This document shows positions 28,109-47,723 of a stretch of 64,000 bases of DNA, piece by piece. Source of the DNA: Zobellia uliginosa. Lineage in GTDB: Bacteria; Bacteroidota; Bacteroidia; Flavobacteriales; Flavobacteriaceae. How positions within the stretch are numbered: position 1 is the first letter of the stretch; every line of letters starts with the position of its first letter. Location of the stretch: the NCBI RefSeq assembly GCF_900156625.1, contig NZ_FTOB01000002.1, forward strand, positions 800,275 through 864,274, written 5' to 3'. The position numbers were made by a program, and so were the translations under genes. Under the pieces are notes generated by a model. It did not search any database, was not told the origin of the DNA, and saw only the letters and a program-made list of their open reading frames with translations.

Positions 28109-28229
28109 CAGCCCCCAATTTAGAAATACCCCTCCTAGGGCAGGGGCCATTTTGTAGGGATATAATTTCGGGTCGCCAGGGGTGGAATTCAAAAAAAACA
28201 AAGACATTTTGTAGGGAGTGGCGTTCTAA
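28109..28229 (+). repeat. 121-bp direct repeat, left copy, at the left edge of the PUL
   Basis: It starts CAGCCCCCAATTTAGAAATA and ends TTCTAA. It matches 47526-47646 in the same orientation with about six substitutions and two one-base indels by hand alignment. Inside it CATTTTGTAGGG occurs twice. An open frame crosses this copy but is interrupted in the other, so it is not treated as a gene. Confidence 0.9.
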
Positions 28230-28353
28230 TGGAGAGGCGTTTACTAAAATGAAAAAGTCATGGATCGAGGTCTCCAAAATGAGTCAAATCAACCAATCTG
28301 TACTTGTTAAATCAAAGGTTTAAAAAAAATAGTCTTGATTTTTTCCGTGAATT

Positions 28354-28956
28354 TTAAATAATCGGATTCATTTTAAAGTCAGTTCTAAAAATCAACATTA
28401 AAATAGTTTCATACTTTTCTCCCATCTTATTTTTTAAGATACGGAAAGCTTTAGTTATTTGAGATTCTACGGTTTTTATAGAAAGGTTAAGGCATTCAGA
28501 AATCTCAATATTAGTGAGTCCTTCTTTTTTACTCATAAGAAAAATCTGTTTACACTTGGGGGGTAATTCCTGAATCGTGTTGAAAAGGATATTCAGAATC
28601 TTTTGTTCTTGTATTTCGTCCTTTTCATCAACGGCAAGGGCCAAAGCCGTTGCGTATGTTTTTTCTAAGGCCATGACGGCCTTCCCTTTTCTATATTCAT
28701 CAATGAATTTATTGTGAACTAATTTATACAGGTAACTTTTTAAAGAAAGTTCAGTTTTTAATTTGTCTCGCTTTTCCCAAATCTGAACAAATACATTTTG
28801 TACAATATCTTCAGCTAACAAATCATCTCTAATTAGGCTGTTGGCATAAGCACATAACCTGTTATGATAGTTCTCTACGAGGTAAGTGTAGGCTTCTTCA
28901 TCACCTTGTTTTAGGCCCTGAATCAGTAAACTTTGATTTGAAAAATGTTTATACAT
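28354..28956 (-). CDS. ECF-type RNA polymerase sigma factor (FecI-like)
   Basis: A 200-residue protein with sigma region 2 (residues of about 25-95, including AEDIVQNVFVQIWEKR) and region 4 (about 125-180, with an HTH reading LTNIEISECLNLSIKTVES). It should direct RNA polymerase to the PUL promoters when released by the anti-sigma factor. It is encoded on the opposite strand to fecR, 111 bp away, instead of ahead of it in one operon. The repeat-like DNA at 28109-28229 lies just past its end. Confidence 0.9.
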   Translation of the reverse strand: MYKHFSNQSLLIQGLKQGDEEAYTYLVENYHNRLCAYANSLIRDDLLAEDIVQNVFVQIWEKRDKLKTELSLKSYLYKLVHNKFIDEYRKGKAVMALEKTYATALALAVDEKDEIQEQKILNILFNTIQELPPKCKQIFLMSKKEGLTNIEISECLNLSIKTVESQITKAFRILKNKMGEKYETILMLIFRTDFKMNPII

Positions 28957-29067
28957 GTTGTGTTTTGTTTATATGTTGGGCTGGTATTTTGGTAAATATT
29001 AAAAAAAAATGTCAAAAAAGTAAGGGTTTATTAAAATGAGTTCGTAATAGTGTGAATTGTTTAATGA

Positions 29068-30231
29068 ATGAAAACAGAAAAAATACATAAACTGATTGTT
29101 AAATATGTTACAGCTACAATTTCGAAATCGGAATTGGACGAATTGGAAATTGAACTCAAACAAGCTTCCAACATTCACCTTTTTAACGAGTATGTAAAAT
29201 TAAATTATAGAATTGACAGTAAAATGAAAACCTACGATACGGAAAAATCAAAACGCCTTTTACTGGATAAGATAAGGAAGGACAAAGAGGTGCCTAGGAA
29301 ATTCACATTGAAGAATTATGTTAAGTACGCGGCACTTATACTTTTATCTATGACTATAGGATATTTGGTGAAGGAGTTTGCCTTTTCGGAAGAGGAAGTA
29401 ATACAATTTTCACCAAAGGAGAATTTTATTACTCTAGAACGTGAAGATGGTAACATTCAAGTTATTTCAGAAGAAGGAACGACACAGGTTTTTGATAAGA
29501 ACGGAAAGGTTGTGGGCTCTCAGATTGGTAATCAATTGGTGTATAAGGATAACAATGATTCCAAAGAAAGTGCGCCGGTCTATAACACGCTAAATGTGCC
29601 TTATGGAAAACGGTTTGAACTTAAATTGGAGGATGGTTCCATAGTATACTTGAATTCAGGATCATCTTTAAAATATCCAGTAAGATTCCGAAAAGGAGCG
29701 GAGCGGAAAGTTTATTTGACTGGAGAAGCTTTTTTGGATATCGCGAAAGACAACAATAGAGCCTTTATTGTTAATGCTGCAGATTTGAACGTAAAAGTAT
29801 ATGGTACTCGTTTCAATGTTTTAGCCTATCCTGAAGATAAGGTAAAAGAAGTAGTTTTAGTTGAAGGGTCCGTTGGGATGTACGCAAAACAAGATGGTCT
29901 TAAATTGGGGAAAGAAACATTGTTGATTCCTGGAACAAAGGGCAAATATGATAATACGATCGGGGATATTTCAACCGAACCGGTTGTAACAAGTATATAC
30001 ACGTCGTGGGTTCAAGGGGTATTGGTATTTAGAAACATGAGTTTTGAGGATATCCTTAAAAAATTGGAAAGACATTACGATGTTAAGATCGTTAATCAAA
30101 ATTCACAATTGTCTACTGAAACATTCAATGCCAGTTTCGGGGATATGTCTATTGAGAAAATATTGGATTATTTCAAGAGTCAGTATGATATGGACTATGT
30201 AATAGAGAACGAGATTGTAATTGTAAAATAA
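29068..30231 (+). CDS. FecR-family anti-sigma factor
   Basis: The 387-residue protein has a cytoplasmic N-terminal sigma-binding part (about 1-80), one membrane segment (about 86-102), a periplasmic FecR domain (about 175-280, from NVPYGKRFELKLEDGS) and a C-terminal DUF4974 domain (about 315-387). It would hold the divergently encoded sigma factor and release it on a signal from the STN domain of the SusC-like receptor. It lies 167 bp upstream of susC and probably shares a transcript with it. Confidence 0.92.
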   Translation: MKTEKIHKLIVKYVTATISKSELDELEIELKQASNIHLFNEYVKLNYRIDSKMKTYDTEKSKRLLLDKIRKDKEVPRKFTLKNYVKYAALILLSMTIGYLVKEFAFSEEEVIQFSPKENFITLEREDGNIQVISEEGTTQVFDKNGKVVGSQIGNQLVYKDNNDSKESAPVYNTLNVPYGKRFELKLEDGSIVYLNSGSSLKYPVRFRKGAERKVYLTGEAFLDIAKDNNRAFIVNAADLNVKVYGTRFNVLAYPEDKVKEVVLVEGSVGMYAKQDGLKLGKETLLIPGTKGKYDNTIGDISTEPVVTSIYTSWVQGVLVFRNMSFEDILKKLERHYDVKIVNQNSQLSTETFNASFGDMSIEKILDYFKSQYDMDYVIENEIVIVK

Positions 30232-30287
30232 CTATTGGATAACTTAAAATAAACCGCTAATGAAGAAATGACTAGAGTAAAATTCGC

Positions 30288-30346
30288 TTTTTCACCCGTT
30301 CTCAACTAAAGTGAAAAAATCGGAAAATGCGTCACCATTTCCCGAT
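30288..30346 (+). promoter_or_regulatory. Two hairpins in the fecR-susC leader
   Basis: TTTTTCAC (30288-30295) pairs with GTGAAAAA (30311-30318). ATCGGAAAAT (30319-30328) then pairs with ATTTCCCGAT (30337-30346) with one mismatch. No T tract follows, so they are more likely an mRNA processing or stability element than a terminator. Confidence 0.5.
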
Positions 30347-30398
30347 TCGTAGAAGTGATTAACCAAATTGTATAACCACAATCAAACATTATAAAAGT

Positions 30399-33300
30399 AT
30401 GAAAAAATTTCTTGATCGAACAAGAAGCGGCCTCCCATTGCTTAAACTCAATTTGAAGATGAAAATCAGTATGTTGTTCATGTTTATGGTCTTATTCACC
30501 ATGCAGGCAAAAACATCGTATTCACAGGTTACCAAGATTTCACTAGACCTGAATAATGTATCGGTGGAAAGAATTATAGATGAAATTGAAAGTCAAACTG
30601 AGTTTCATTTTGTGTATCAAATCAAAGATGTTGATTTAAAGAGGGTAATTAGTGTAAAGGCTACGCAAGAAACCGTACCACAGATTTTAACTAGAATTTT
30701 CGCAAAAACAAGAACTACGCATCGGGTAGTGGACAAACAGATATTTCTTAAAAAAAGAAGGGTCGCCAGCCTAAAACGTGATAAAAGTGTGGTTCAGCAA
30801 AAGTTGGTTATAACGGGTACCGTAACTGATACCAATGGACAACCATTACCTGGGGCAAATATTGTGGAAAAAGGTACCACTAATGGGGTTACTGCAGATT
30901 TTGATGGTAATTTTTCATTTGAAGTAGCCACAGATGCAATAATAGTGGTCAGCTATATTGGTTTTGCCTCGAAAGAAGTTCCAGTAAATGGGGAAGCTAA
31001 CGTGAATATTTCATTGGAAGAAAGTGCAGCGGGCTTAGAGGAAGTTGTTGTTGTGGGTTACGGAACTCAGAAAAAAGTTAACTTAACTGGGGCAATATCA
31101 ACAGTACAATTTGATGAAGAACTGGAAAATCGACCAATTACGAATGCTTCGCAAGCCCTGGGAGGAACGGCATCCGGTATTTGGGTTAGTCAAAACTCAG
31201 GAAAACCAGGTGGAGATGGAGCTCAGATACGTATCAGGGGATGGGGCACACTAAATAATGCAAATCCTTTGATAATAATTGATGGTGTTGAAGGATCATT
31301 TAATCAATTAAACCCGAATGATATAGAGAGTATATCTGTCTTGAAAGATGCAGCTAGTGCGGCTATATATGGTTCTAAAGCTGCAAATGGAGTTGTTTTA
31401 ATTACGACGAAGAAGGGGGGTCTGGGGCAAGAAATGCAGGTTAATATTAGTTCTTACGCCGGTATACAATCATTAGGTAGGCGATATGATTTAATTACCG
31501 ATAGCTCAGAAAGTATGGAGCTGACTAATATAGGGCTAGTTAATGATGGAGGTAGCCCACTTTTCTCACAAGAATTAATTTCAGAATTTAAAAATAGTAG
31601 CGATAAATATAAATATCCGAATACGGATTGGTATAAAGCTTTATTTAGAACCGCTGCCATTCAAGAGCACAATATATCAGTAAAGGGAGGTTCGGAAAAA
31701 ACTAGCTCATACATTTCTGTTAATTATTTGGATCAAGAGGGAATCATTCCAAATACAGAGTCAGAAAGATATGGAATTAGACTTAATGTAGAATCCAATG
31801 TTAAAGATTGGTTGACCGTAGGAGCTAAAGCAAATTATATCCGAAGAAATTCTAAAGAACCCTATGCGGATATTACTTATGGTTCAGTTGGTCGCGTTTA
31901 TAATATGCTTGGCGGAGCCACCCCATATATAGCTCCATATACTCGAGATGGACAGTTTGGTTCAGTACAAGCCATAGATGAGAATGGTAGTCTTTTATAT
32001 GACAATAGAAATCCTTTGATAGATGCGGCAAATGGCTCTACAATTACTGAAGAAAATTTTCTGACATTAAATCTACATGCTAATATTAAGTTCAATGACA
32101 ACCTATCACTTAGGACAACAATTTCTACCAACGGAAACTGGAATCTTATTGATAAGTTCAATACAAGTGTCTTTGGGTATACAGACACTGGTATGGAGAC
32201 CACAACAAAGAATTATAATCGAGAAGGTTTGGAGATTAATAGAGCACAAGTATCTACATTACAAAACAACCTGTTTTCTACTATAAATTATACTAAAAAT
32301 TTCGCTAAGATTCATGATGTATCAGCTATCGCAGGTATTCAATTGGAAACAAACAAAGTTCAAAATGTATTTGCTCGTAGGACAGCTCCTCCAAAAGAGG
32401 GTTTAACACAAGTAGATGCGGGAACTTCTGGAGTTCAAGGAGAAGGGAACATGACAGCGCTAAGAATATTCTCTTATTTTGGCCGACTAAACTATACCTT
32501 ATCTGATAAGTATTTGTTAGAAGCTAACTTCCGAGCAGACGGTTCATCTAGGTTTAGTAAAAATAATCGATGGGGAGTATTCCCGGGCTTTTCAGCAGGT
32601 TGGAGAGTATCTCAAGAACAATTTATTCAAGAGTTAGATGTTTTCTCAAACTTAAAATTACGAGCGTCTTGGGGGCAGTTGGGGAATCAAAACCTAGACA
32701 GTTTTTGGCCGTATTTAACTGTAATAAATCAGAGTAACGATTTGAGTTACAATTATAACGGCGCGTTTGCCCCAGGAGCTGCTGTTACCAACCTTGTAGA
32801 CGAGAACATAACTTGGGAAAAATCTTCGAGTATTGATCTTGGGATAGATATAGGCCTAATGGATGGAAAGATTGGAATAGAAGCTGATTATTTTCAAAAG
32901 AAAACTGAAAATATTCTTGTTCAACTACCTCTCCCTCTCGTCCACGGTGGTGTGTCGTCACCTTTTCAAAATGTGGGAGAGATGTCTAATAACGGTTTTG
33001 AGTTTGTCGTAAATTATGACAACCATAAGTATGAAAGAAAAGACCTTAGTTTTAACGTTGGAGGCAATTTTACATACATAGTTAATAAAGTGACCAAATT
33101 CCAAGATGGGAACTCTCCTGATCAACTTTACTTAATTAGAGAAGGTTATTCTTTTCGATCATTATACGGGTATAAAGTAGAAGGAATCTACCAATCAGAC
33201 GATGAAGCATTAACTCACATGCACTCTAACGGTTTAAAGCCTAAAGCCGGAAATTTGAGATATGTGGATTTAAATAACGATGGAAAGTTAAATTTTGAAG

Positions 33301-33806
33301 ATAAACAAGTTTTAGGGAATACTATACCAAAATTCACTTACGGTATTTCATCAGGGTTCAAATATGAAGGTTTTGATTTAAGCCTGCTTTTTCAAGGTAT
33401 TGCCGGAGCTAGTGCTTTTACTCAGAATAACTTTACAAACATATCTTATGAAAATCGAGTTTTTTCAACGCGATGGAGAGACGCATGGACTCCAGAAAAT
33501 ACAGATACTGACATGCCGAGTTTTAAATTTAATGATTCTTGGGATAATTCAGATTCTTCTTTTTGGGTAAGGAAAATAAACTTTATAAAATTGAAGAATG
33601 TTCAAGTTGGGTATAGTTTTCCAGATGCATTAATATCACATTTGGGAATGGATAAAATCTACATATACGCTAACGCCCAAAATGTTTTTACCATAGCTAA
33701 TAAGGACTACGAAGGCTATGACCCTGAGAGGAGTACATTTGATAGTGGCGGTGGATTCTACCCCATTCCAAGAATTGTTTCAATAGGTTTAAATCTTAAT
33801 TTCTAA
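30399..33806 (+). CDS. SusC-like TonB-dependent receptor with N-terminal STN domain
   Basis: The 1135-residue outer-membrane protein starts with a signal peptide, then an STN signalling domain (about 45-115, VTKISLDLNNVSVERIIDEI), a carboxypeptidase-regulatory-like domain (about 135-215, GTVTDTNGQPLPGANI), a TonB-type segment VVVGYGTQKK, the plug and a 22-strand barrel to the C-terminal IVSIGLNLNF. It imports an oligosaccharide with its SusD partner. The STN domain shows that it also signals to FecR. SusD follows after 3 bp. Codon use is AT-rich compared with flanking core genes. Confidence 0.95.
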   Translation: MKKFLDRTRSGLPLLKLNLKMKISMLFMFMVLFTMQAKTSYSQVTKISLDLNNVSVERIIDEIESQTEFHFVYQIKDVDLKRVISVKATQETVPQILTRIFAKTRTTHRVVDKQIFLKKRRVASLKRDKSVVQQKLVITGTVTDTNGQPLPGANIVEKGTTNGVTADFDGNFSFEVATDAIIVVSYIGFASKEVPVNGEANVNISLEESAAGLEEVVVVGYGTQKKVNLTGAISTVQFDEELENRPITNASQALGGTASGIWVSQNSGKPGGDGAQIRIRGWGTLNNANPLIIIDGVEGSFNQLNPNDIESISVLKDAASAAIYGSKAANGVVLITTKKGGLGQEMQVNISSYAGIQSLGRRYDLITDSSESMELTNIGLVNDGGSPLFSQELISEFKNSSDKYKYPNTDWYKALFRTAAIQEHNISVKGGSEKTSSYISVNYLDQEGIIPNTESERYGIRLNVESNVKDWLTVGAKANYIRRNSKEPYADITYGSVGRVYNMLGGATPYIAPYTRDGQFGSVQAIDENGSLLYDNRNPLIDAANGSTITEENFLTLNLHANIKFNDNLSLRTTISTNGNWNLIDKFNTSVFGYTDTGMETTTKNYNREGLEINRAQVSTLQNNLFSTINYTKNFAKIHDVSAIAGIQLETNKVQNVFARRTAPPKEGLTQVDAGTSGVQGEGNMTALRIFSYFGRLNYTLSDKYLLEANFRADGSSRFSKNNRWGVFPGFSAGWRVSQEQFIQELDVFSNLKLRASWGQLGNQNLDSFWPYLTVINQSNDLSYNYNGAFAPGAAVTNLVDENITWEKSSSIDLGIDIGLMDGKIGIEADYFQKKTENILVQLPLPLVHGGVSSPFQNVGEMSNNGFEFVVNYDNHKYERKDLSFNVGGNFTYIVNKVTKFQDGNSPDQLYLIREGYSFRSLYGYKVEGIYQSDDEALTHMHSNGLKPKAGNLRYVDLNNDGKLNFEDKQVLGNTIPKFTYGISSGFKYEGFDLSLLFQGIAGASAFTQNNFTNISYENRVFSTRWRDAWTPENTDTDMPSFKFNDSWDNSDSSFWVRKINFIKLKNVQVGYSFPDALISHLGMDKIYIYANAQNVFTIANKDYEGYDPERSTFDSGGGFYPIPRIVSIGLNLNF

Positions 33807-33809
33807 ATT

Positions 33810-35375
33810 ATGCGATTAAAAGATATTTCAAATAAAGTATTGTTGGCTGTTTTGATTTTATTATTTAACAGTTGTGACAAAAATTTTCTCGGAGTTACTC
33901 CTGAGGATAAAATTACTTCAAATAATTTTCCAGAAAGTGAAGATGATATCGACTTGTTATTAAATGGTGTATACAATGAATTACATGATGGAAGGTCTAT
34001 ATGGGATGAATTCTTATTTGGATTTGGGATGCTTGACGGTGCAACCCCTAATTCCTTTAACTGGGGGAACACCGATGTTTCAAAAATAGGAAATGGTTCT
34101 CTTTCCACTGGAGACACAGGGTTTTTGACATTTCGTTGGACAAAATGTTATGCAATAATCTCACGAGCGAACTACCTTTTGGAAGCGATTGAATTAGTTG
34201 AATTAGGTGAAAATGATAAATCAAGAATAGTTGGTGAAGCCCATTTCCTCAGAGGCTTAGCTTACTCAATATTGGTTGAAACATATGGGGGTGTTCCTTT
34301 AATAGAGGCTACAATCGCTCCAGAAGAGTCCAGACAGCTGAGTAGAGCATCAATAGAAGAAACATGGGCTTTTGTTATATCGGATTATGACACAGCAATT
34401 GATAACTTAGGGGTTGATGCACCGGAAGTTGGCAGGGCAACAAAGGGAGCGGCATTGGGGTTGAAAATGCGGGCTTATCTGTATCAAAACAAATATGAAC
34501 AGGTGCTTAGTGTTATCAATGAAATAGAGGCATTAAACAAATATGGATTATTCCCAAGTTATGAAGGATTGTTTAGGTTAGAGAATGAAAACAATCAAGA
34601 AGTTCTTTTTGATGTGCAATATATGCGTGGTGAAAATTCACAAGGGACCATGCATGATCAATTTTCAGGAATAGGAACAGGTAGTTTTACTAGAGGAAGC
34701 CGTTATGTTCCGACTCAAGATTTGATTGATGCTTATGAAATGATAGATGGTTCCAATGTAGATCCAGAAAACCCTTATGAGGGAAGAGACCCACGTTTAG
34801 AGTTTACATGTGTGGTTCCAGGAGCATATTTTTTAGGCTATCGCTTTCCAAATTATATTTACCCGGGAGGCGCGTATAATCATCCTGGATGTCAGCTAAA
34901 GCAATTTAGCGCGCGAAAATATCAAATCGAGCCCTTGTCTGAATTACCACCATCGGGCCAATCGGACTTAAATTATATTGTTTTGAGGTACGCCGATGTT
35001 ATTCTTGCGAAAGCTGAAGCTATTATAGAAACAAATGGTAATATCAATGAAGCTATTGATTTGATAAATAGAATTAGAACAGAAAGAGATGATGTGAAAT
35101 TAACAGCGCTACCGATGGGACTTTCCCAAGGGGAGGCTCGTTCCCATCTCAGACGCGAGAGACGTATAGAATTCGCATTTGAAGGTTTGTATTGGTCTGA
35201 TATAAAGAGGTGGGATATAGGAAAGGATATTTATCCATATGAAGTATTAAATTATGATGGGGGTATAATAGAAACCAAATTTCCTGGGGGATATTTAGAC
35301 TATTATGACTTACTTCCTATCCCAGATAGTGAGATATCACTAAATAAAAATCTTGTGCAGAACCCAGGTTGGTAG
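33810..35375 (+). CDS. SusD/RagB-like surface glycan-binding lipoprotein
   Basis: A 521-residue lipoprotein (lipobox LLFNSC) with the SusD layout: an N-terminal tetratricopeptide-like helical part (ESEDDIDLLLNGVYNEL), the FLRGLAYSILVETYGGVPL segment and the C-terminal LRRERRIEFAFEGLYWSDI motif. It lies over the SusC barrel and delivers glycan. It starts 3 bp after susC. The ligand cannot be read from sequence; the neighbours suggest a sulfated algal polysaccharide. Confidence 0.95.
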   Translation: MRLKDISNKVLLAVLILLFNSCDKNFLGVTPEDKITSNNFPESEDDIDLLLNGVYNELHDGRSIWDEFLFGFGMLDGATPNSFNWGNTDVSKIGNGSLSTGDTGFLTFRWTKCYAIISRANYLLEAIELVELGENDKSRIVGEAHFLRGLAYSILVETYGGVPLIEATIAPEESRQLSRASIEETWAFVISDYDTAIDNLGVDAPEVGRATKGAALGLKMRAYLYQNKYEQVLSVINEIEALNKYGLFPSYEGLFRLENENNQEVLFDVQYMRGENSQGTMHDQFSGIGTGSFTRGSRYVPTQDLIDAYEMIDGSNVDPENPYEGRDPRLEFTCVVPGAYFLGYRFPNYIYPGGAYNHPGCQLKQFSARKYQIEPLSELPPSGQSDLNYIVLRYADVILAKAEAIIETNGNINEAIDLINRIRTERDDVKLTALPMGLSQGEARSHLRRERRIEFAFEGLYWSDIKRWDIGKDIYPYEVLNYDGGIIETKFPGGYLDYYDLLPIPDSEISLNKNLVQNPGW

Positions 35376-35479
35376 TCCATAGTATTAGATACCTGGTTTA
35401 ACCCTTTATTTAAAAAGCCATTTGAAATGCATATAAGCTATTTGCTTTATGTCAAATCTCTCGTGTAAAATAATTAGAT

Positions 35480-36928
35480 ATGATAAAATCATTGAGTTTG
35501 ATATATATCAACATGAATCACATTGGTTCCATTTTATTCCTAATGTTTATTAGTGTGAATTGTGAGTTGTATGGACAAACGGTCAAATTAGAAAACCAGC
35601 CTAATTTCATCATTATTTTTGCAGATGACCTTGGCTATGGTGATTTGAGTACATACGGACATCCCAGTATCGAGACACCGAATCTTGACCGAATGGCTAG
35701 TGAAGGACAGAAATGGACAAATTTTTATGTTGGGGCCAGTGTTTGCACGCCAAGTAGGGCAGCTCTTCTTACAGGAAGGCTGCCCATAAGAAGTGGAATG
35801 ACCAGTAACAAAGTAAGGGTACTCTTCCCTAATTCAGTTAATGGTCTGCCTGCCGATGAAATTACTTTGGCCGAACAATTGAAGGAGGTTGGCTATGGAA
35901 CTGCTTGTATAGGGAAATGGCATTTGGGCCATAAAAAGGAGTATCTGCCTACTAATAATGGATTCGATTATTATTTTGGAATCCCATACTCCAATGATAT
36001 GGACAACTTAGCTAAGTTAAAGTCCAAGGAAGAGTATGAGAAATTTTGGCATAACCGTAGCAATATAAAATCAGAAAACTTTAATGTTCCCTTGATGCGG
36101 AACACTAATATTATTGAGCGTCCAGCTAACCAAAATACTATTACAAGACGTTATACAGAGGAGGCTATTTCCTATATTAGAAAGAACAAGGATAGTCCTT
36201 TTTTCTTGTATTTAGCTCATAATCTTCCTCATATTCCATTATTTGCGTCTAAAGAATTCTTGGGAACAAGCCGGAGGGGAATATACGGTGATGTAATAGA
36301 GGAAATTGATTATGGCGTAGGCCAGATAATTTCTGCTTTAAAAGAAGAAGGTCTGACGAACAATACAATTGTTGTTTTTACTTCTGATAACGGACCTTGG
36401 CTATCTTTCAAGGCTGATGGTGGTAGTGCGGGATTATTAAAGGCAGGAAAAGGAATGACTTGGGAAGGGGGGATGAGGGTTCCTGGTATTTTTTGGTCAC
36501 CGACAAAGATTAAACCAGGACTAATATCTGATATAGGAACTACAATGGATTTATTTACAACTTTCAGTCATATGGCAGGGGTTTCAATTCCTAATGACCG
36601 TATAATTGATGGGGTAGACTTAAGTGCTACCTTATTGAGATCTGAACCTAGCGATAGGGATGAAGTTTTGTATTACAGGGGGAGTGACCTTTACGCAATG
36701 CGGGTAGGTTCTTTTAAAGCACATTTTATTACGGAAGGTGAGTATGGAATGTACGGGGAGCGTCAGTTACATGAACCACCCTTATTATATAATTTAAATC
36801 ATGATCCTTCCGAGAAATATAATATAGCAGAAAGACATCCCGAAGTCCTTGAAAAAATTAGGGCTGCCGTTAAAAAACATGAGTCAGGTTTAGTTATAGG
36901 AAGGGATTTGTTAATAGAAAGAAATTGA
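35480..36928 (+). CDS. Exported Cys-type sulfatase (S1 family), PUL sulfatase 1
   Basis: A 482-residue protein with a signal peptide (ATG at 35513 would give a shorter one). It has the alkaline-phosphatase-type sulfatase fold with the metal-binding ADDLGYGD stretch and the formylglycine motif C89-TPSR, followed by ALLTGR and then GKWHLG. The cysteine must be converted to formylglycine by a maturase that is not in this window. It should remove a sulfate ester from an algal glycan in the periplasm. It follows susD by 104 bp and precedes sulfatase 2 by 3 bp. It resembles the gene at 38374 most closely by eye. Confidence 0.93.
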   Translation: MIKSLSLIYINMNHIGSILFLMFISVNCELYGQTVKLENQPNFIIIFADDLGYGDLSTYGHPSIETPNLDRMASEGQKWTNFYVGASVCTPSRAALLTGRLPIRSGMTSNKVRVLFPNSVNGLPADEITLAEQLKEVGYGTACIGKWHLGHKKEYLPTNNGFDYYFGIPYSNDMDNLAKLKSKEEYEKFWHNRSNIKSENFNVPLMRNTNIIERPANQNTITRRYTEEAISYIRKNKDSPFFLYLAHNLPHIPLFASKEFLGTSRRGIYGDVIEEIDYGVGQIISALKEEGLTNNTIVVFTSDNGPWLSFKADGGSAGLLKAGKGMTWEGGMRVPGIFWSPTKIKPGLISDIGTTMDLFTTFSHMAGVSIPNDRIIDGVDLSATLLRSEPSDRDEVLYYRGSDLYAMRVGSFKAHFITEGEYGMYGERQLHEPPLLYNLNHDPSEKYNIAERHPEVLEKIRAAVKKHESGLVIGRDLLIERN

Positions 36929-36931
36929 TAT

Positions 36932-38296
36932 ATGAAAGACTTTTTTACTTATCCCGAGTTTGTTCGAAAAACAACATTTCGAAAATATGGCTTTATACTT
37001 CTTAATTTGTTTATCGCTTTTTTACAAATAGGTTGCAAAAATGAAGGAAAAATAACCAGCCCTAATATCATATTGATTATGGCGGATGATTTGGGTTACG
37101 GTGAATTAGGGTGTTATGGTAACATGGAAATCAATACCCCTAATTTGGATTATTTGGCAAATAATGGGGCGAAATTCACAGATTTTCATTCTAATGGTTC
37201 GGTATGTACCCCCACACGGGCAGCTTTGCTAACGGGAAACTATCAACAGAGGTCTGGTATGGAAGGAATTATATACGTTAGCGGACCAACCAGAGAGGTA
37301 GGTCTAAATCCCAATCAACATACAATTGCTGATTTTTTGAAAAGTGAAGGATATGTAACTGGAGTAATGGGTAAATGGCATCTAGGTTACAATGAGAAAT
37401 TTAATCCAACCAATTTGGGTTTTGATGAGTTTTATGGGTATCTCAGTGGGAATGTTGATTATCATTCCCATTTTGATAATTCAGGAATTTATGACTGGTG
37501 GCACAACTTGGACACCTTGAATGAAGAGGGATATTCGACCGATTTGATATCAAAACATTCAGTAGAATTTATTGAAAAAAATAAAGATAAACCTTTTTTT
37601 CTTTATGTGCCTCATGAGGCTCCTCATGTGCCATTTCAGGGTAGAACCGACAAGGCTTACCGCTTTTCTAACAACGAATTTACCTATCATGGACCAGTGG
37701 AAGATAAGAAGCGAGCTTATAGGGAAATGGTTGAAGCAATGGATGATGGAATAGGAATGATTTTCAAAAAATTAAGAAAATTGGAAATTGAAGATAATAC
37801 TTTGGTGTTTTTCCTTTCGGATAATGGCGCTGAAAAGTTTGGTAATAATGGTGTTTTGAAAGGAACAAAAGGAAGTTTGTTGGAAGGAGGCCACCGTGTT
37901 CCGGCAATAGCTTATTGGAAGAATAAAATAAGTCCTAAAATAACAAATGAAGTATTGATGTCTATGGATTTGTTGCCTACAATCTTGTCTATAGTCAAGG
38001 CACCTCTCGCCAAGTTTGATGGAGTAAATTTCTCTGAAATTTTATTTTCTGAAACTGAAGTGCATCTTGAAGATAGACCTGTTTTTTGGAGGTATAAAGG
38101 AAGTAAGGCTGTCAGGCATAAAGATTGGAAACTGATAATTAAAGAAAAAGACACTGTTTTATATAATCTAAGTGCAGATTTAAAGGAGTCAAAAAATCTT
38201 TACTCTCATAACAATCCTGTTGCAATGAAATTAATTCAAAGTTTAAAGGACTGGGAAAATGAAATAGGTCCTGAGGACAAAATGATAACACTTTAA
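36932..38296 (+). CDS. Cys-type sulfatase lipoprotein (S1 family), PUL sulfatase 2
   Basis: A 454-residue sulfatase with a possible lipobox LQIGC after a long N-region. The metal site ADDLGYGELGCYG and the formylglycine motif C92-TPTR are present, with GKWHLG and FFLSDNG further on. It is shorter than the other sulfatases of the locus because the C-terminal subdomain is compact. It starts 3 bp after sulfatase 1 and is probably translated with it. Confidence 0.92.
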   Translation: MKDFFTYPEFVRKTTFRKYGFILLNLFIAFLQIGCKNEGKITSPNIILIMADDLGYGELGCYGNMEINTPNLDYLANNGAKFTDFHSNGSVCTPTRAALLTGNYQQRSGMEGIIYVSGPTREVGLNPNQHTIADFLKSEGYVTGVMGKWHLGYNEKFNPTNLGFDEFYGYLSGNVDYHSHFDNSGIYDWWHNLDTLNEEGYSTDLISKHSVEFIEKNKDKPFFLYVPHEAPHVPFQGRTDKAYRFSNNEFTYHGPVEDKKRAYREMVEAMDDGIGMIFKKLRKLEIEDNTLVFFLSDNGAEKFGNNGVLKGTKGSLLEGGHRVPAIAYWKNKISPKITNEVLMSMDLLPTILSIVKAPLAKFDGVNFSEILFSETEVHLEDRPVFWRYKGSKAVRHKDWKLIIKEKDTVLYNLSADLKESKNLYSHNNPVAMKLIQSLKDWENEIGPEDKMITL

Positions 38297-38373: not shown

Positions 38374-39816
38374 ATGTTAAATAAGAGTGTGTATATAATA
38401 ATTATACTGATTTTATTACCAAATTTTGTGGTAAGTCAAGACGGCAAAAAGCCTAATATTATTGTGATATTTTGTGATGATTTGGGTTTTGCAGATTTAT
38501 CCTCCTATGGGTCTATATGGAATGAAACTCCGGAAATAGATAAGATGGCGACTGAGGGACTGCGTTTTACCAATTTTTATGCAGGAGCACCTGTTTGTAC
38601 ACCATCTAGGGCCGCTTTGATGACCGGGTGTTACGCTAGACGAGTTGATATGGATTTAGATGCTAAAAATAGGTGGGTGCTTTTTCCAGTTGCGAAAAAA
38701 GGCATTAACCCTAAGGAAATAACTTTGCCAGAGGTATTAAAAGAAGAGGGGTATTCTACCGCTATTATTGGCAAATGGCACTTAGGTGATCAACCTGAAT
38801 TTTTACCTACCAAGCATGGTTTTGATTATTGGTTTGGGTTACCTTATTCAAATGACATGGAAGTACTAAAAAGGGAAGATCCTCCATTACCATTGATGAG
38901 GAATGAGAAAGTAGTTCAGCAGTCTAATAAGTTAAAAGTTTTTGACCAGACAACCCTGACTAAGCGCTACACAGAAGAGGCCGTTCAATGGATAGACAGT
39001 AATAAGGAGAAACCTTTCTTTTTATATCTAGCGCATACAATGCCTCACAACCCTGTAGCGGCACGACCAGAATTTTATAAAAAAACAACAAATCCCAAAA
39101 AGGGATTTGGAGCCGCTGTTGCGGAAATTAGCTGGTCTACAGGTGAAATCTTATCCTATTTAAAAAAAGAGAACCTAGATAAAAATACCTTGGTCATTTT
39201 TACATCTGATAATGGAGGAAATCCAAATTGGGGAGCAAGTAATGGTATTTTAAAAGGCAAAAAAGGGCAGACTTCTGAGGGAGGAATACGTGTGCCTTGT
39301 ATTGCGTGGTGGCCAGGAAAAATAGAACCAGGAACAACTTGTACTACTCCTGCTTCGGTTATAGATTTTTATTCCACGTTTTCTTCATTGGCCAATATTA
39401 AATTGGAAGATGCAACAAAGAGGGATGGGAAAGATATCTCCCAGTACTTTTTTAATCCTCACTTAGAGGTTGAGCCTAGACCATTTTTTTATTGGCACGT
39501 TGGTTATCTTGAAGCAATCAGGTATGGTGATTGGAAAATTAACCTTATGGGAGATTTCTCTAAGAAAGCCAAAGAGAATATAGCCAAAAGCACATACTCT
39601 GAGGTTAGTTCTCTGGGTCAAGTTGAATTATACGATTTAAATAATGACCCTGGAGAGAGGTTTAACATTGCAGACGCACATCCCGAGATTGTTCAAAAAC
39701 TAATATCCATGGCGGACAAGGAAAGAGCTGCTCTCGGTCAATGGAACGATAAAGGGCCAGAGGTCAGAACTACTATTTATAAAAAGAATCCGAAACCCTT
39801 GTTAAAGCAGCCATAA
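38374..39816 (+). CDS. Exported Cys-type sulfatase (S1 family), PUL sulfatase 3
   Basis: A 480-residue exported sulfatase with the [13 protein letters not shown] metal site and the formylglycine motif C75-[24 protein letters not shown] and the segment LPYSND follow; these same words recur in decayed form in the relic at 41545-41835. It is separated from sulfatase 2 by 77 bp and from sulfatase 4 by 10 bp. Its substrate position is not predictable from sequence. Confidence 0.93.
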
Positions 39817-39826
39817 AAAAAAGACT

Positions 39827-41491
39827 ATGATAAATATGAGAAAAATATCTTCAGTGCTATCTATTGGAAGGTATTTGACAATAGCTTTTACATTATTATT
39901 TATGACCATCGGTCATTCCCAAAAAAAAGATAAAAGACCAAATATTGTATTCGCTTTTGCTGATGATTGGGGCAAGTATGCCAGTTGTTACGCTACAATA
40001 AAAGGAAATCCAGAATGGCAAAAAATAGTTAAAACCCCAAATATAGATCGATTAGCAAAAGAAGGGATTCTCTTTAACAATGCTTATGTGAATGCACCAT
40101 CTTGTACTCCCAGTAGGAGTTCAATCCTTTCCGGGCAATATTTTTATCGCACAGGAATGGGAAGTATTTTGTTGGGAGCTGTTTGGGATAGTAGTATTCC
40201 GACTTATCCACTTCTATTGGAAAAAAACGGGTATCATATAGGATACACATATAAAGTGTGGAGTCCAGGAACACCAAAAAATGCAGGTTACGGAGGGGAT
40301 AGAACCAAATATGAGTCCGGAGGAAATCTTTTTAATCGTTTTAGTCAAAATGTTAATAAATTCATGGAGGAAGGACAATCTATGAATTATGCAAAGCAAC
40401 TATTATACGATGAAGTCAGTGCAAATTTTCTTCAATTTTTAAATGATAACGATAATGGAAAACCATTTTGTTATTGGTTTGGCCCAACTAACACACATCG
40501 TAAATGGACAGCTGGTTCCGGTAAGAATTTATGGGGAATAGACCCTGATGAGTTGAAAGGGAAACTACCCCCATTTTTACCTGACGTTGAAATTGTTAGA
40601 GAAGATTTTGCAGATTATCTGGGAGAGGTAATGGCCTTTGATAGTGGTTTGGGAATTTTGATTAAAACGCTTGAAGAAAAAAAATTAATGGATAATACCT
40701 TAATTGTTATTAGTGGAGATCATGGAATTCCTGGATTTACTAATGGTAAGACTAACCTTTACGATTTTGGGACTAATGTCTCACTAATAGCACATTGGCC
40801 TTCCGTAATAAAACCTGGACGGATAGTTGATGACTTTGTGAACCTTATGGATTTAGGTCCTACTTTTTTGGAAGTAGGAAATGTTGATATACCGGAAGTT
40901 ATGACAGGTAAAAGTTTAGTTTCACTTTTTAAAAGCCCCAAGAAGAAAGGATTTGTCGAAAAAAATAGAAATTACGTAATTACAGGAAGGGAAAGACATG
41001 TTCATTCCGCTAGAACAGGCTACCTTCCCTATCCGCAACGGTCCATTAGAACCAAAGATTTCTTATACATAATAAACTTTGAACCCGATAGATGGCCTAT
41101 GGGGAATTCTGGTATTTCAAACTTAGATTTTGAAACTTTGGCCAATAACACCACTGTTGCTTATCCAGATTTTGATGCTAGTCCTACAAAGGCATGGCTT
41201 ATTATAAATAAGGAATTAAGTGGTAATCAATTGTTCTATAATTATGCTTTTGGGAAAAGGCCTAAAGAGGAACTTTTTGTTATCAATTCAGACCCGTTTC
41301 AAGTGAATAATGTTGCTAGTATATCAAAATATGGAACAATTAAAAAGCAATTAAAAGAGAAATTACTATCCGAATTAAAACGTACAGAAGACCCTAGGGT
41401 TACAGGGAATGGAAAATCTTTTGACAACCCTCCGTATACAAAAACAGTAGATCTGCCCGGATGGTTTATTCCTCAAGATAAAAAGCTATAA
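39827..41491 (+). CDS. Exported Cys-type sulfatase (S1 family, heparan-sulfatase-like), PUL sulfatase 4
   Basis: A 554-residue exported protein (alternative start MRKISS at 39836). The metal site is [11 protein letters not shown] and the formylglycine motif is C93-TPSRSS. The order of motifs ([15 protein letters not shown]) is unlike the other three and fits a separate sulfatase subfamily often annotated as heparan N-sulfatase-like. It probably acts on a different sulfate position. It ends the first sulfatase run and is followed by a sulfatase relic. Confidence 0.9.
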
Positions 41492-41544
41492 AGTTGAAAT
41501 CATACTTATTGTAATCATTTTTTTTGATGCATGCTCTTTCAGTA

Positions 41545-41835: not shown

Positions 41836-41953
41836 TATCTATAACAATAACCTAAAACTTCATTGGATAAAAATATTGGTATTCCAATTCAAAGAATTAA
41901 GACTATAAGAGGAATTTCACAAATTACTCTACACCTAACTCTAAAACATAAAA

Positions 41954-43372
41954 ATGATTTCAAATAAACGGACAAAATATTTAGTAGTTTTCATAGCACT
42001 ATGTTGTAGCCACACCTTTTCTCAAGAAACGACATATGTTGATATTCCTTTAACTGATTTTAGAGCTTTTAATCAACCAGATCAAAATTGGGTGATAACA
42101 TCGGACTTTGATAGCGATTTTACGAAACCATGGAATTTGAAAAGAATAAAGCCAGGCAGTGGGGTTGCTCTAAATAACTACAGTGAAAAAACACATGGAC
42201 ACTTGGTTACCAATAAAGAGTTCGGAGACTTGGATTTAGAATTTGATTTCATGATGGATAAGGGTTCTAATTCAGGAATATACCTCCAAGGCAGGTATGA
42301 GATACAACTGTTTGATAGTTGGTTAAAATCAAATTCGACTTATGCTGATTGTGGCGGTATTTATCAGCGGTGGAACGAAGAGGGGGGTATGAAGGGATAT
42401 GAGGGAGTCTCTCCTTTGGTCAATGCTTCATATGCTCCAGGACTTTGGCAGCATCTGCGCATTATTTTCAAGGCTCCGAAATTTGATGATAAGGGTAATA
42501 AAGTTGCGAATGCCCGTTTTAACGAGGTTTATCTTAATGGAGTATTGATACATAATCAGGTGGAGGTCTCAGGACCCACAAGGGCAAGTCTTTTTCACGA
42601 TGAAAAATCTTTAGGTCCGCTTATGTTCCAGGGCGATCATGGTAAAGTTGCTTTACGCAATATCAGATATCGATCTATTCAAAAGAATGTCGGTAAAGGA
42701 AAAAATAGTAAGTCGGGTATAAATATAATAAAGCCAATCAAGAGACCATATTTGCTAAGAAGCTTCATCATGTTTAAGGGAGAAAAGTTGAATAAAGTCA
42801 TTTCTTTGGGACACCCCAGTGGATTGAGTTATGCCTATAACTTAGAGAAGGGAGCATTGTTAAAAGTATGGAGGGGAAACTTTATGGATGTCACGGATAT
42901 GTGGCATCATAGAGGGCAGGCGCAATTAGCAAAACCATTAGGTAATACCATATCGCTTTCAAATTCGCCCGCAATAGCTTTATTATCGGATTTTCATGAG
43001 CCATGGCCAGATTCTATCGCGCCCAGTATGGTTCATCAAGGTTATGCATTAGATAAAAATGGAGTTCCGAAATTCACTTTTAATATATGTGGTGTTAATT
43101 TGACGGATTACATTGTTCCTTTGGATGACGGAATGGGCTTTGAACGAACCTTGACTCTAAATGGCGAGATAGACACCAATCTTTATTCCAGAATAATATC
43201 GGCAGAGTCAATTGTGCAGATATCCAAAGAAGTTTACCGTGTTGATGGAAACTATTATGTTATGATAGACAAAAAATTTCAATCCAAAAAGAGAGAAACC
43301 AAAACGGGCCAGGAACTGTTAGTAAATATTGGTAAAGTGTCTTCGGAAATTACCTATTCTATTATTTATTAG
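41954..43372 (+). CDS. Exported DUF1080 (3-keto-disaccharide hydrolase-like) protein
   Basis: A 472-residue protein with a signal peptide. The first 260 residues form a concanavalin-like DUF1080 domain (DLDLEFDFMMDKGSNSGIYL, then QGRYEIQLFDSW). The second half, from KRPYLLRSFIMFKGEKLNK, is a beta-rich region of the type often placed before heme-domain modules in Planctomycetes and Bacteroidetes. It lies 46 bp before the propeller-cytochrome gene and is likely its partner. Some DUF1080 proteins hydrolyse 3-keto glycosides; that activity is a possibility here, not shown. Confidence 0.75.
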   Translation: MISNKRTKYLVVFIALCCSHTFSQETTYVDIPLTDFRAFNQPDQNWVITSDFDSDFTKPWNLKRIKPGSGVALNNYSEKTHGHLVTNKEFGDLDLEFDFMMDKGSNSGIYLQGRYEIQLFDSWLKSNSTYADCGGIYQRWNEEGGMKGYEGVSPLVNASYAPGLWQHLRIIFKAPKFDDKGNKVANARFNEVYLNGVLIHNQVEVSGPTRASLFHDEKSLGPLMFQGDHGKVALRNIRYRSIQKNVGKGKNSKSGINIIKPIKRPYLLRSFIMFKGEKLNKVISLGHPSGLSYAYNLEKGALLKVWRGNFMDVTDMWHHRGQAQLAKPLGNTISLSNSPAIALLSDFHEPWPDSIAPSMVHQGYALDKNGVPKFTFNICGVNLTDYIVPLDDGMGFERTLTLNGEIDTNLYSRIISAESIVQISKEVYRVDGNYYVMIDKKFQSKKRETKTGQELLVNIGKVSSEITYSIIY

Positions 43373-43418
43373 TACTCGAACCCTGTAAGAAAATGTTTAT
43401 CTACATAATTTATTATCG

Positions 43419-45311: not shown

Positions 45312-45742
45312 GAATTAAAAAACTGAAAAATTGTTTTTATATCATAATAATGGTTACTTACCAATATCAAAAGTTGAGTTAGCTTGATTTGAAAAATATT
45401 AAGGGATTCAATGTTTAGATATGAGGTTATAATTTTCTGACTTGTTAGTTTAGTTATTGTAAACTATTGATTCCTGAGGTGTTATGTTTTAATAGTCATT
45501 GTTTTGATACAATGGAATAAGTATTTTAATTCCTCACCCGTTATTTTAGAACAGGTAACATTCTATTTCATAAAAAACTATAATATTATTGACACAATTT
45601 TAATACTGTTATCTACTTTGTTTTTCATGTGATTAGCTATTCCCCTAAATACGTCAAAGGTATTTATGGTGGTAATTTAACTTTTCTCAACAGATTCATA
45701 ATATTTTAAAAGATATGCGGAGAAGTCAATTAATAATTTAAT
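45312..45742. other. AT-rich intergenic region before the last PUL sulfatase
   Basis: No ORF of note and no clear hairpin or promoter box was found. The length suggests that the gene at 45743 is transcribed from its own promoter. Confidence 0.4.
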
Positions 45743-47386
45743 ATGAGAAAAATTGGCATTTTAATTTTTAGTTTATTGTGTTTATTCGGTTGCAATAATC
45801 AAAAGAAAGAAAGCAACCCGAGAAAAGTAACCGTTGATCAGCGTCCCAACATACTTTGGATAGTGGCCGAAGATTTGAGTCCGGTATTGCCATCGTTTGG
45901 AGACTCCACAGTGGTTACACCCAATATTAGCCGTTTGACTGCAGAGGGGGTTAGGTATACAAATGTATTTTCTCCATCTGGTGTCTGTGCGCCTAGTAGG
46001 GCCGCAATTGCAACGGGTATGTACCAGAACCATATAGGGGCCCAACACATGAGAACTAGGGGAAATAGAAAATTCTTACCAGAGGTAATTCAACCTTATG
46101 GTGCAATGCCTCCTGCTGATGTAAAGATGCACAGTGAACATTTAAGGCTTGAAGGTTATTACTGTTCCAATAACAGTAAAGAGGATTATCAATTTATGCC
46201 ACCTGTCACAGCATGGGACGAAAGCAGTAAAAAAGCCCATTGGAGAAATCGCGGGCCAAACCAACCCTTTTTTTCTATTTTCAATCTTAATGTTACACAT
46301 GAATCCCAAATATGGGCGAGGGCTAAAGATTCACTTTGGGTTGCCGATGATTTAGATGTACCTGTTCCTCCCTATTTGCCGAACACTGAGGTTGGACGTA
46401 ATGATATTAGAAGAATGTATTCCAATGTTAAGGAAATGGACCATCAAGTAGGTGAGATACTGACCCAGTTGGAAGAGGACGGCTTATTGGAAAATACGAT
46501 TATATTCTGGTATGCCGACCATGGCGGACCCTTACCACGGCAAAAACGCCTTTTGTATGATTCGGGAATGAAGTTACCGTTAGTAATACGATATCCAGGT
46601 AAGAAGAATGCGGGTACAATAGATGACCGTTTGATAAGTTTTGTTGATTTTAAGCCCACTTTATTGTCTTTGGCGGGAATCCAACCGCCTAAGAATCTTG
46701 ACGGTAGAGCCTTTGCTGGAGAATTCGAATCTGAGGAAAGGAGAGAATATGTATATGGTGCAGCGGACCGGTTTGATAAACAATACGATATGATTCGGGC
46801 AGTTCGTGACAATCGCTATAAATATTTAAAAAATTTCCGTACAGAACAGGGCTATTATTTGCCTGTAGCATTTCGGGAGCAGATGCCCATTATGCAAGAA
46901 TTACTTCGAATGCGTGATAATGGGGAGCTTAATGAAGATCAGGCTCAATGGTTTCGAGACAAAAAGGAACCTGAAGAGTTATTCGATACTTATAACGACC
47001 CTTACGAACTGAACAATTTGGCCGGAGACCCCCAATATGAAAAGAAATTAAAAGAGTTAAGATACGAATGTAAACGTTGGATGCAATCAATAGGGGATAA
47101 AGGCTTAATGCCCGAAAAAGAATATGTAGCGTCGATTTGGCCCTCAGGAACCCAACCCAAAACGGAGAATCCCCTAATTGAAAAGAGAAATAACAGGATA
47201 GCTATTAGTTGTAAAACTGATGGGGCATCTATCGGGTATCAAATTTTAAAGGAGAATGAAGAAATCGGGAATGTGTGGCAGGTTTATAAAGAGCCTTTTT
47301 CTTTACAAGGGAATGAACGTGCCATAACCTTGGCCCATAGAATAGGATACCTTCAAAGTAATCAGGTTTGGATTGATGGGAAATAA
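45743..47386 (+). CDS. Cys-type sulfatase lipoprotein (S1 family), PUL sulfatase 5
   Basis: A 547-residue protein with lipobox LFGC, so it is anchored to a membrane or the cell surface. The metal site is AEDLSPVLPSFGD and the formylglycine motif is C82-APSR, followed by AAIATG. The motif YADHGGPLPRQKR marks the second metal-binding region. The last 60 residues form an extra beta-rich tail. It belongs to a different sulfatase subfamily from numbers 1-3. It is the last gene before the right-hand direct repeat. Confidence 0.92.
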   Translation: MRKIGILIFSLLCLFGCNNQKKESNPRKVTVDQRPNILWIVAEDLSPVLPSFGDSTVVTPNISRLTAEGVRYTNVFSPSGVCAPSRAAIATGMYQNHIGAQHMRTRGNRKFLPEVIQPYGAMPPADVKMHSEHLRLEGYYCSNNSKEDYQFMPPVTAWDESSKKAHWRNRGPNQPFFSIFNLNVTHESQIWARAKDSLWVADDLDVPVPPYLPNTEVGRNDIRRMYSNVKEMDHQVGEILTQLEEDGLLENTIIFWYADHGGPLPRQKRLLYDSGMKLPLVIRYPGKKNAGTIDDRLISFVDFKPTLLSLAGIQPPKNLDGRAFAGEFESEERREYVYGAADRFDKQYDMIRAVRDNRYKYLKNFRTEQGYYLPVAFREQMPIMQELLRMRDNGELNEDQAQWFRDKKEPEELFDTYNDPYELNNLAGDPQYEKKLKELRYECKRWMQSIGDKGLMPEKEYVASIWPSGTQPKTENPLIEKRNNRIAISCKTDGASIGYQILKENEEIGNVWQVYKEPFSLQGNERAITLAHRIGYLQSNQVWIDGK

Positions 47387-47525
47387 ATAAAAGAAGTAAT
47401 TCTACTATGAAATAACATTTTCTATTAGGAGAATTAGTTTAGCCCCTTTTCTTTGCGTTATTATCGGCTTTGTAGGAAAGCTTTTCCGTGCTTTAATCAA
47501 TAATCCATTACCCTAAAACATAATC

Positions 47526-47646
47526 CAGCCCCCAATTTAGAAATAACCCCCTAGGGCAGGGGCCATTTTGTAGCGATATAATTTCGGGCCGCCAGGGGTG
47601 GAATTAAAAAAAAACAAAGACATTTTGTAGGGGAGTGGCTTTCTAA
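47526..47646 (+). repeat. 121-bp direct repeat, right copy, next to tRNA-Met
   Basis: Same orientation as, and nearly identical to, 28109-28229; the two starts are 19,417 bp apart. It lies between the last sulfatase gene and the terminator of the tRNA-Met transcript, 78 bp from the tRNA 3' end. Confidence 0.9.
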
Positions 47647-47699: not shown

Positions 47700-47723
47700 C
47701 TATTTTGCAGGTTTTGAACCTTG

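What the first reader, a model, noticed from the sequence alone, without database searches (positions are those of the whole stretch)
28109..47646. A sulfatase PUL bounded by 121-bp direct repeats beside tRNA-Met: a probable inserted cassette
The 121-bp sequences at 28109-28229 and 47526-47646 agree at nearly all positions (about six substitutions and two one-base indels by hand alignment) in the same orientation, and they enclose exactly the sigma-FecR-SusC-SusD-sulfatase set. The right copy lies 78 bp from the 3' end of tRNA-Met, a common insertion position. The enclosed genes are AT-richer by eye than the flanks; illustrative hand counts are 13 G+C of 60 at 31561-31620 and 33 of 60 at 52801-52860. 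No integrase or transposase is visible, so excision or mobilisation would need help, or the repeats could be a dispersed element that served homologous recombination. A whole PUL held between long direct repeats could be lost or exchanged in one step.
Basis: partly seen in the sequence, partly recalled or inferred. Interest (0 to 1): 0.75.

Follow-up and report, generated by a model that had tools for sequence, protein, structure and literature searches.

The report
Imported sulfatase locus with chimeric transporter
A 19-kb block of genes for using sulfated sugars was probably dropped into this marine bacterium's chromosome next to a tRNA gene, and its import protein looks like a splice of a conserved sensor front and an unrelated transporter back, which suggests how such bacteria may change diet while keeping the same switch.

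Summary
The two 121-bp direct repeats (5 substitutions, 2 one-base indels) are the only two copies in the 5.3-Mb genome. In the closest relative, G006 (flanks ~94% identical), both flanks meet at ONE repeat copy and the PUL is absent. The segment is 36.6% G+C against 42-46% around it. So it is a present/absent cassette, most likely gained here. No integrase was found in it and the repeat is not the tRNA end, so the mobilisation mechanism stays open.

The more interesting structure is inside. Sigma, FecR and the first ~225 residues of SusC match four congeners at 78-88% DNA identity; in three they lie just inside a tRNA-Met att-like end. In two, the last sulfatase also matches (81-89%). The genes between do not match at DNA level. 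The break is at the SusC TonB box; beyond it the protein follows a Parabacteroides distasonis SusC (63%; front 30-37%) instead. Trees of the two halves conflict. The locus looks like a constant sensor arm carrying an exchangeable import/sulfatase module. PUL exchange between conserved nodes is known; the in-frame TonB-box splice is the new variant.

The parts
26394..27827 (+). DNA/RNA non-specific endonuclease gene, conserved left 'node' of the hotspot
   Evidence: PF01223; found in 8 of 9 genus genomes, own included; 83-97% aa in the other seven
28109..28229 (+). left 121-bp direct repeat
   Evidence: single copy at the empty site in G006
28354..28956 (-). ECF sigma factor (constant arm)
   Evidence: PF04542/PF08281, TIGR02985; 78-83% aa in G001, G007, G008
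29068..30231 (+). FecR-type anti-sigma factor (constant arm)
   Evidence: PF04773/PF16344; 76-89% aa in G001, G007, G008
30399..31070 (+). SusC front part: signal region, STN, CarboxypepD_reg (NTE) domain and TonB box (constant arm, residues 1 to ~224)
   Evidence: PF07660, PF13715; residues 1-215 are 73-93% identical to four congeners, 30-38% to P. distasonis and G322
31035..31070 (+). TonB box LEEVVVVGYGTQ, the splice point
   Evidence: identity to congeners falls and to P. distasonis rises across 31029-31118; DNA shown
31071..33806 (+). SusC plug and barrel (variable module)
   Evidence: PF07715, PF00593; residues 233-1135 63% to P. distasonis, 27-32% to four congeners
33810..35375 (+). SusD (variable module)
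   Evidence: PF07980/PF14322; 64% to a P. distasonis SusD
35480..36928 (+). sulfatase S1a, CTPSR motif
   Evidence: PF00884; motif; best solved relative arylsulfatase A
36932..38296 (+). sulfatase S1b, CTPTR motif
   Evidence: PF00884; motif; best solved relative exo-4S-kappa-carrageenan sulfatase
38374..39816 (+). sulfatase S1c, CTPSR motif
   Evidence: PF00884; motif
39827..41491 (+). sulfatase S1d, CTPSR motif
   Evidence: PF00884; motif
41954..43372 (+). 3-keto-disaccharide hydrolase-like protein
   Evidence: PF06439
43419..45311 (+). DUF7133-like protein with C-terminal cytochrome c (CVACH at residue 560), possible sugar dehydrogenase (inference)
   Evidence: the DUF7133 and TIGR02604 matches are below their cut-offs
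45743..47386 (+). sulfatase S1e, CAPSR motif (right constant arm)
   Evidence: PF00884; motif; 81% DNA to G001, 89% to G008; best solved relatives S1_8 sulfatases
47526..47646 (+). right 121-bp direct repeat
47723..47797 (-). tRNA-Met(CAT), right node of the hotspot
   Evidence: ARAGORN, Rfam tRNA

Best explanation
The 19.4-kb segment is a sulfatase PUL gained in this lineage at a genus-wide hotspot between an endonuclease gene and tRNA-Met. SHOWN: the closest relative has a clean empty site with one repeat copy; several outer PUL genes are closer to one congener (G008) than the flanking core genes are; five loci in the genus share a left arm (sigma, FecR, SusC front to the TonB box), three of them also the last sulfatase, while the genes between differ. 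INFERRED: the DNA came from a low-G+C congener and entered by recombination at the pre-existing 121-bp sequence (one crossover with a circle or a duplicated donor end, giving two copies). The middle was spliced onto the sensor arm by recombination in the short conserved DNA of the TonB box. Functionally, the STN domain of SusC would signal through FecR to the sigma factor whichever plug/barrel is attached, so the swap changes the imported and desulfated glycan while keeping the regulatory circuit.
For: Empty site. Two copies only. G+C 36.6% vs 42-46% around it; PUL loci of G001, G007, G008 36.6-37.6%, of G006 38.0%. DNA identity to G008: FecR 89.7, SusC front 92.9, S1e 89.3 against 70.2-83.3 for ten flank genes; to G006: sigma 80.5, FecR 79.1, SusC front 77.5 against 86.7-97.7 for the same ten. 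The two repeat copies differ at 5 of 120 sites, but from the G006 copy at 22 of 116 and 23 of 117 (Fisher p 4e-4 and 2e-4). Left arm shared in 10 of 10 pairs of 5 loci; no DNA match over 100 bp in the middle in 9 of 10, the exception being 150 bp at 69% in SusC of G008/G007. SusC reciprocity and tree conflict: front G000+G008+G001 97/99, barrel G000+P. distasonis 100/99; AU p 5e-5 and 7e-6. STN signalling to anti-sigma factors: PMC7782687 (passages).
Against: No integrase, relaxase or circle seen. The donor is not identified: the nearest barrels are 63% (P. distasonis) and 49% (G322), and 0 of 394 other class genomes match the plug/barrel at E<=1e-200. The transfer signal is strong only for G008: sigma is 79% there, within the flank range; for G001 only FecR (84.3) and the SusC front (88.2) exceed the flank genes (71.4-82.6); for G007 the arm (77.7-79.4) does not exceed them (71.9-82.3). 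121 bp is short for homologous recombination. Gene conversion between the repeats could mimic recent duplication. The N/C split and tested groups were chosen after seeing the identity profile, so the p-values are descriptive.
Confidence: 0.75

Rival explanations
1. The PUL and both repeats are ancestral at this site, and G006 lost them by recombination between the repeats, leaving one copy.
For: The empty site with one copy is what such a deletion leaves. Of the 7 columns where the two copies differ, the G006 copy agrees with the right copy at 3 (columns 21, 25, 116), with the left at 2 (50, 82) and with neither at 2 (65, 106); columns 50-116 alone would fit one joint, columns 21 and 25 do not.
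Against: The copies are more alike than either is to G006; low G+C; arm genes closer to G008 than to the G006 homologue; none of the six congeners in which the interval can be read has this PUL there (G007 and G008 not readable).
Confidence: 0.2
2. The segment is a former tyrosine-integrase island whose att is the 121-bp repeat and whose integrase was lost.
For: Congeners carry ~490-540-aa tyrosine recombinases next to tRNA-Met or partial tRNA-Met copies, and PULs with this sigma/FecR arm sit just inside such att-like ends in G001, G007 and G008.
Against: The repeat holds no tRNA sequence and lies outside the tRNA/terminator block used in congeners; no integrase found; no wider family of this repeat found.
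Confidence: 0.2
3. SusC is not chimeric; the front is simply under stronger selection in this genus.
For: The sensor domain must fit FecR, so conservation is plausible.
Against: Reciprocal pattern: against P. distasonis the front is 30-37% and the barrel 63%; the barrel tree groups G000 with P. distasonis 100/99 and rejects the congener clade.
Confidence: 0.03
4. An active SusC shufflon (DNA inversion) exchanges the barrel within this genome.
For: Such receptor shufflons are described in Bacteroides (PMC12548429, PMC12632263, passages).
Against: No inverted repeat of 30 nt or more at the TonB box in the window; no recombinase among scanned neighbours; one left-arm match in the genome (in which only the best 2 of 84 first-look candidates were scored).
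Confidence: 0.03

Closest known systems
PULs exchanged between conserved core-gene 'nodes' in Bacteroides ovatus/xylanisolvens (PMC8845570; passages read)
   Same: Different PULs sit between the same conserved genes in relatives; no mobilisation genes observed; homologous recombination between nodes is proposed.
   Different: Here the insert is bounded by a 121-bp repeat present once at the empty site, and the exchange boundary also runs inside susC at the TonB box. Whether that paper reports such breakpoints was not checked beyond the passages.
SusC/SusD receptor shufflons of Bacteroides (mentioned in PMC12548429 and PMC12632263, passages; primary paper PMC2747901 not held)
   Same: Different receptors are placed under one regulator (as PMC12548429 puts it).
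   Different: No inverted repeats, silent copies or invertase found here; the variants lie in different species, not in one genome.
tRNA-integrated genomic islands with tyrosine integrases
   Same: Same tRNA-Met hotspot; congeners have partial tRNA copies and integrases there.
   Different: In the window the repeat excludes the tRNA and no integrase was found.
Parabacteroides distasonis sulfatase PUL on NZ_OY725757.1
   Same: Closest SusC/SusD of the module found (58% over the whole SusC, 64% SusD), followed by sulfatases.
   Different: Its sigma and FecR are only 33-36% identical and its SusC front 37%, that of its neighbour PUL 30%.

Membership tests
Polysaccharide utilization locus | adjacent SusC-SusD pair | tested here: met
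   Pfam
Polysaccharide utilization locus | linked regulator (ECF sigma/FecR) and carbohydrate-active or sulfatase genes | tested here: met
   all five sulfatases hold C-x-P-x-R; no glycoside hydrolase or polysaccharide lyase Pfam hit besides PF06439
Polysaccharide utilization locus | induction by a glycan | not testable with these tools
   needs expression data
tRNA-site integrative element | integrase gene inside or beside the element | tested here: not met
tRNA-site integrative element | direct repeat that duplicates the tRNA 3' end | tested here: not met
   76 bp separate repeat and tRNA; the genome's other two matches to the tRNA block are the left repeat and another tRNA-like stretch on a different contig (8 of 84 candidates scored)
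tRNA-site integrative element | empty site with one repeat copy in a relative | tested here: met
   G006
Node-flanked PUL exchange by homologous recombination | different contents between the same conserved genes in relatives | tested here: met
   7 of 9 genus genomes (own included) readable: 2 empty (G004, G006), 5 occupied, 4 of these by PULs
Node-flanked PUL exchange by homologous recombination | transferred genes closer to another species than the core genome is | tested here: met
   for G008 (three of four arm genes) and partly G001 (two of four), not for G007
SusC shufflon | inverted repeats and silent SusC segments with an invertase | tested here: not met
   window, repeats of 30 nt or more; one left-arm match per matching genome, best 2 candidates scored; no recombinase among scanned ORFs

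The most novel reading that the evidence does not exclude
The TonB box is a recurrent in-frame splice point in Bacteroidota: PULs are built from a constant sensor arm (sigma, FecR, SusC STN/NTE) and a freely exchangeable plug-barrel/SusD/enzyme module, so one regulatory circuit is re-aimed at new glycans by recombination. Two further SusC pairs among the 17 compared fit it: P. distasonis paralogues, 30% front vs 87% barrel; G255/G087, 41% vs 86%.
Probability: 0.45. Interest if true: 0.75.

Novelty: new variant of a known kind. Interest (0 to 1): 0.6.

Why it matters
PUL gain and loss is well known, but how a newly arrived receptor and enzyme set becomes correctly regulated is less clear. A sensor half kept while the receptor half and enzymes are swapped at a fixed protein boundary gives a simple answer, and one that can be tested by domain swaps and by scanning SusC genes for front/back conflict.

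Tried and rejected
Dispersed repeat element: rejected, 2 copies in the genome. Integron attC or structured RNA for the 121-bp repeat: both strands of both copies fold no better than shuffles (z 0.23 to 1.02); the only Rfam match at gathering score in the window is the tRNA. Repeat core pattern in genome contigs: 2 stretches, Paenibacillus montanisoli and a Caldilineaceae MAG, taken as chance (records near the window's genome may be left out there); viral contigs: 0. Homology of the 121-bp repeat to the ~150-bp terminator-like element of G001, G008 and G007: none seen. Origin of the middle module: 299 family genomes, best other match 48%; 395 class genomes, only the own one at E<=1e-200; 163 plasmid records with a match, best 58%. 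For the trees, 7 of 13 further SusC loci were dropped because my filter found no intact ORF with the EVVV.GYG motif. Result against the recurrence idea: the fronts of the two P. distasonis SusCs are not significantly forbidden from being sisters (AU p 0.122), although they are 30% identical. Long branches were flagged in both trees, and two long ones joined in the front tree. The repeat mismatch counts typed into (7/119 and so on) were hand estimates; one search recounted them and replaces them.
Full report
OBSERVATION. The window contains two 121-bp direct repeats at 28109-28229 and 47526-47646, which differ by 5 substitutions in 120 columns and 2 one-base indels. The whole 5,303,163-base genome holds only these two. 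They enclose an ECF sigma gene, FecR, SusC, SusD, five sulfatases, a 3-keto-disaccharide hydrolase-like protein and a DUF7133-like/cytochrome c fusion. All five sulfatases have the C-x-P-x-R signature. The enclosed DNA is 36.6% G+C; the left 20 kb is 42.5%, which includes another low-G+C block (12574-21577, 38.7%), the leftmost 12.6 kb 45.9% and the right flank 44.2%. tRNA-Met lies at 47723-47797.

EMPTY SITE. Of 149 related genomes searched, own included, only G006 in the same genus has another true copy of the repeat. G006 matches the window at 92.6-96.5% in the large collinear blocks on both sides. Window 26329-28229 and 47532-49649 map to L065 16096-18004 and 17894-19998, overlapping in one repeat copy, and the whole PUL is missing there. 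Intergenic DNA beside the repeat is 88% (left) and 91% (right) identical to G006, other nearby intergenic stretches 87-99%, the repeat 84% or 81%. The two copies differ at 5 of 120 sites, but from G006 at 22 of 116 and 23 of 117 (Fisher p 4e-4 and 2e-4). This favours gain here over loss in G006, though gene conversion between the copies could mimic it.

HOTSPOT. The endonuclease gene at 26394-27827 is found in 8 of 9 genus genomes. The interval from it to tRNA-Met can be read in 7 of 9: about 0.5 kb in G006, 0.4 kb in G004 (without the repeat), 12 kb in G002 and G003, 20 kb here, 22 kb in G005 and 51 kb in G001 (coordinates). G008 is split over contigs; G007 has no endonuclease match. G001, G002 and G003 hold other PULs there. 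G001, G005, G007 and G008 carry partial copies of the tRNA-Met 3' half with its terminator. Except at the G007 copy, a PF00589 tyrosine recombinase (~490-540 aa) lies beside these copies, and G003, G008 and G001 also have one beside the full tRNA. None of this was found in the window.

MOSAIC. DNA from the end of the sigma gene to window ~31077 is 78-88% identical to loci in G001, G006, G007 and G008 (to 30916 only in G007), and at E<=1e-60 to none of the 140 searched genomes outside the genus (5 of 149 in all, own included; best 2 candidates scored per genome). In G001, G007 and G008 this arm begins 309-384 bp inside a partial tRNA copy; in G006 it lies at 588.6-591.3 kb. The last sulfatase is shared with G001 and G008 only. 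Between the arms, 9 of 10 pairwise comparisons show no DNA match over 100 bp; G008 and G007 share 150 bp at 69% in SusC, and a 74-bp match at 73% in SusC to G001 was seen. G008 and G007 also share a downstream second PUL, outside the module, and G001, G008 and G007 a ~150-bp downstream element. At protein level the middles are distant members of the same families: SusC 37-44% overall (shared front included), SusD 24-27%, sulfatases about 23-43% in G001, G007 and G008 (last sulfatase aside). FecR, the SusC front and S1e are closer to G008 (89.3-92.9% DNA) than ten flank genes are (70.2-83.3%); sigma (79.1%) is not. For G001 only FecR and the SusC front exceed the flank genes; for G007 nothing does. 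To G006 the arm genes are far less alike (77.5-80.5%) than the flank genes (86.7-97.7%). I read this as horizontal transfer between congeners.

CHIMERIC SusC. Identity changes over in the TonB box, window 31035-31070. Residues 1-215: G008 93%, G001 88%, G006 79%, G007 73%, P. distasonis 37% and 30%, G322 38%. Residues 233-1135: 32, 30, 27, 27, then 63, 63 and 49%. Front tree: G000 with G008 and G001, 97/99. Barrel tree: G000 with the P. distasonis pair, 100/99. Forcing the opposite grouping is rejected, p 5e-5 (front) and 7e-6 (barrel); because groups and split were chosen after seeing the profile, these are descriptive. Seven of 13 extra SusC loci were dropped before the trees, leaving 17 rows. 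Two other pairs show the same pattern: P. distasonis paralogues 30% vs 87%, though the AU test for their fronts gives p 0.122, and G255/G087 41% vs 86%, p 0.021.

MECHANISM. Shown: presence/absence at one repeat, foreign composition, a congener-like arm, a spliced SusC. Inferred: import from a low-G+C congener; recombination at the pre-existing 121-bp sequence, which doubles it; recombination in the conserved TonB-box DNA, which attaches a new plug-barrel/SusD/sulfatase module. STN domains of SusC proteins are reported to take part in anti-sigma signalling, and the NTE precedes the TonB box (PMC7782687, passages), so the constant half is the sensor half. That paper says the NTE precedes the STN in such SusCs; here Pfam puts the STN (70-119) before the CarboxypepD_reg/NTE domain (138-218). 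The glycan is unknown.

CONTEXT. PULs swapped between conserved nodes by homologous recombination are proposed for gut Bacteroides (PMC8845570, passages). Receptor shufflons under one regulator are mentioned in PMC12548429, and inversions that affect SusCD orthologs in PMC12632263 (passages). In ten paper searches I saw no listed title or abstract start that describes TonB-box SusC chimeras; two listings were cut (20 of 25, 12 of 17), passages of five papers were read, and most subscription papers are not held. The genus is probably Zobellia: the G006 contig is 5,521,712 bp, which I recall as Z. galactanivorans DsijT, and PMC8073546 (passages) gives 4.92-5.52 Mb and 36.7-42.8% GC for the genus. 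No tool named the organisms.

Noticed in passing
window 21878-26328 with 42-nt direct repeats at 21836-21877 and 26329-26370: A cadherin/Big-domain gene (22100-25645) is missing at the tRNA-Met site of G006, where only one such repeat remains, so a second present/absent segment with direct repeats lies next door.
   Followed up: partly
L126:7366-10771 (G006 C1:592366-595771): The G006 homologue of that cadherin gene (83% DNA) lies beside the G006 copy of the sigma-FecR arm at another site near tRNA-Pro/tRNA-Ser, same order and orientation as here except that the endonuclease gene lies between them in the window, so the two may travel together.
   Followed up: partly
window 12573-21578: A block with PLD-like, type I restriction-modification (HsdM, HsdS, HsdR) and Fic genes, 38.7% G+C, absent at the corresponding G006 site.
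   Followed up: no
G001 C1:4280000-4296600 (L073): Integron-like array: ten aligned ~150-220-bp repeats between small ORFs, mostly on one strand, an IS1182 transposase and a 375-aa integron/Xer-type recombinase, upstream of tRNA-Met; similar small-ORF runs by eye in G005 and G008.
   Followed up: partly
G001 C1:4223131-4223330; G008 C3:31111-31300; G007 C10:834934-835133 and 843654-843833: A ~150-bp element with a terminator-like hairpin and a conserved tail recurs downstream of PULs in these congeners, twice in G007 on either side of a second PUL; shorter pieces elsewhere in G007 and G008.
   Followed up: partly
window 23420-25129: Six copies of a 282-bp-spaced tandem repeat inside the cadherin gene, the later five 64-96% identical to the first.
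   Followed up: no
L109 (NZ_OY725757.1 115761-155111): Two P. distasonis PULs on one replicon have SusC barrels 87% identical but fronts only 30% identical.
   Followed up: partly
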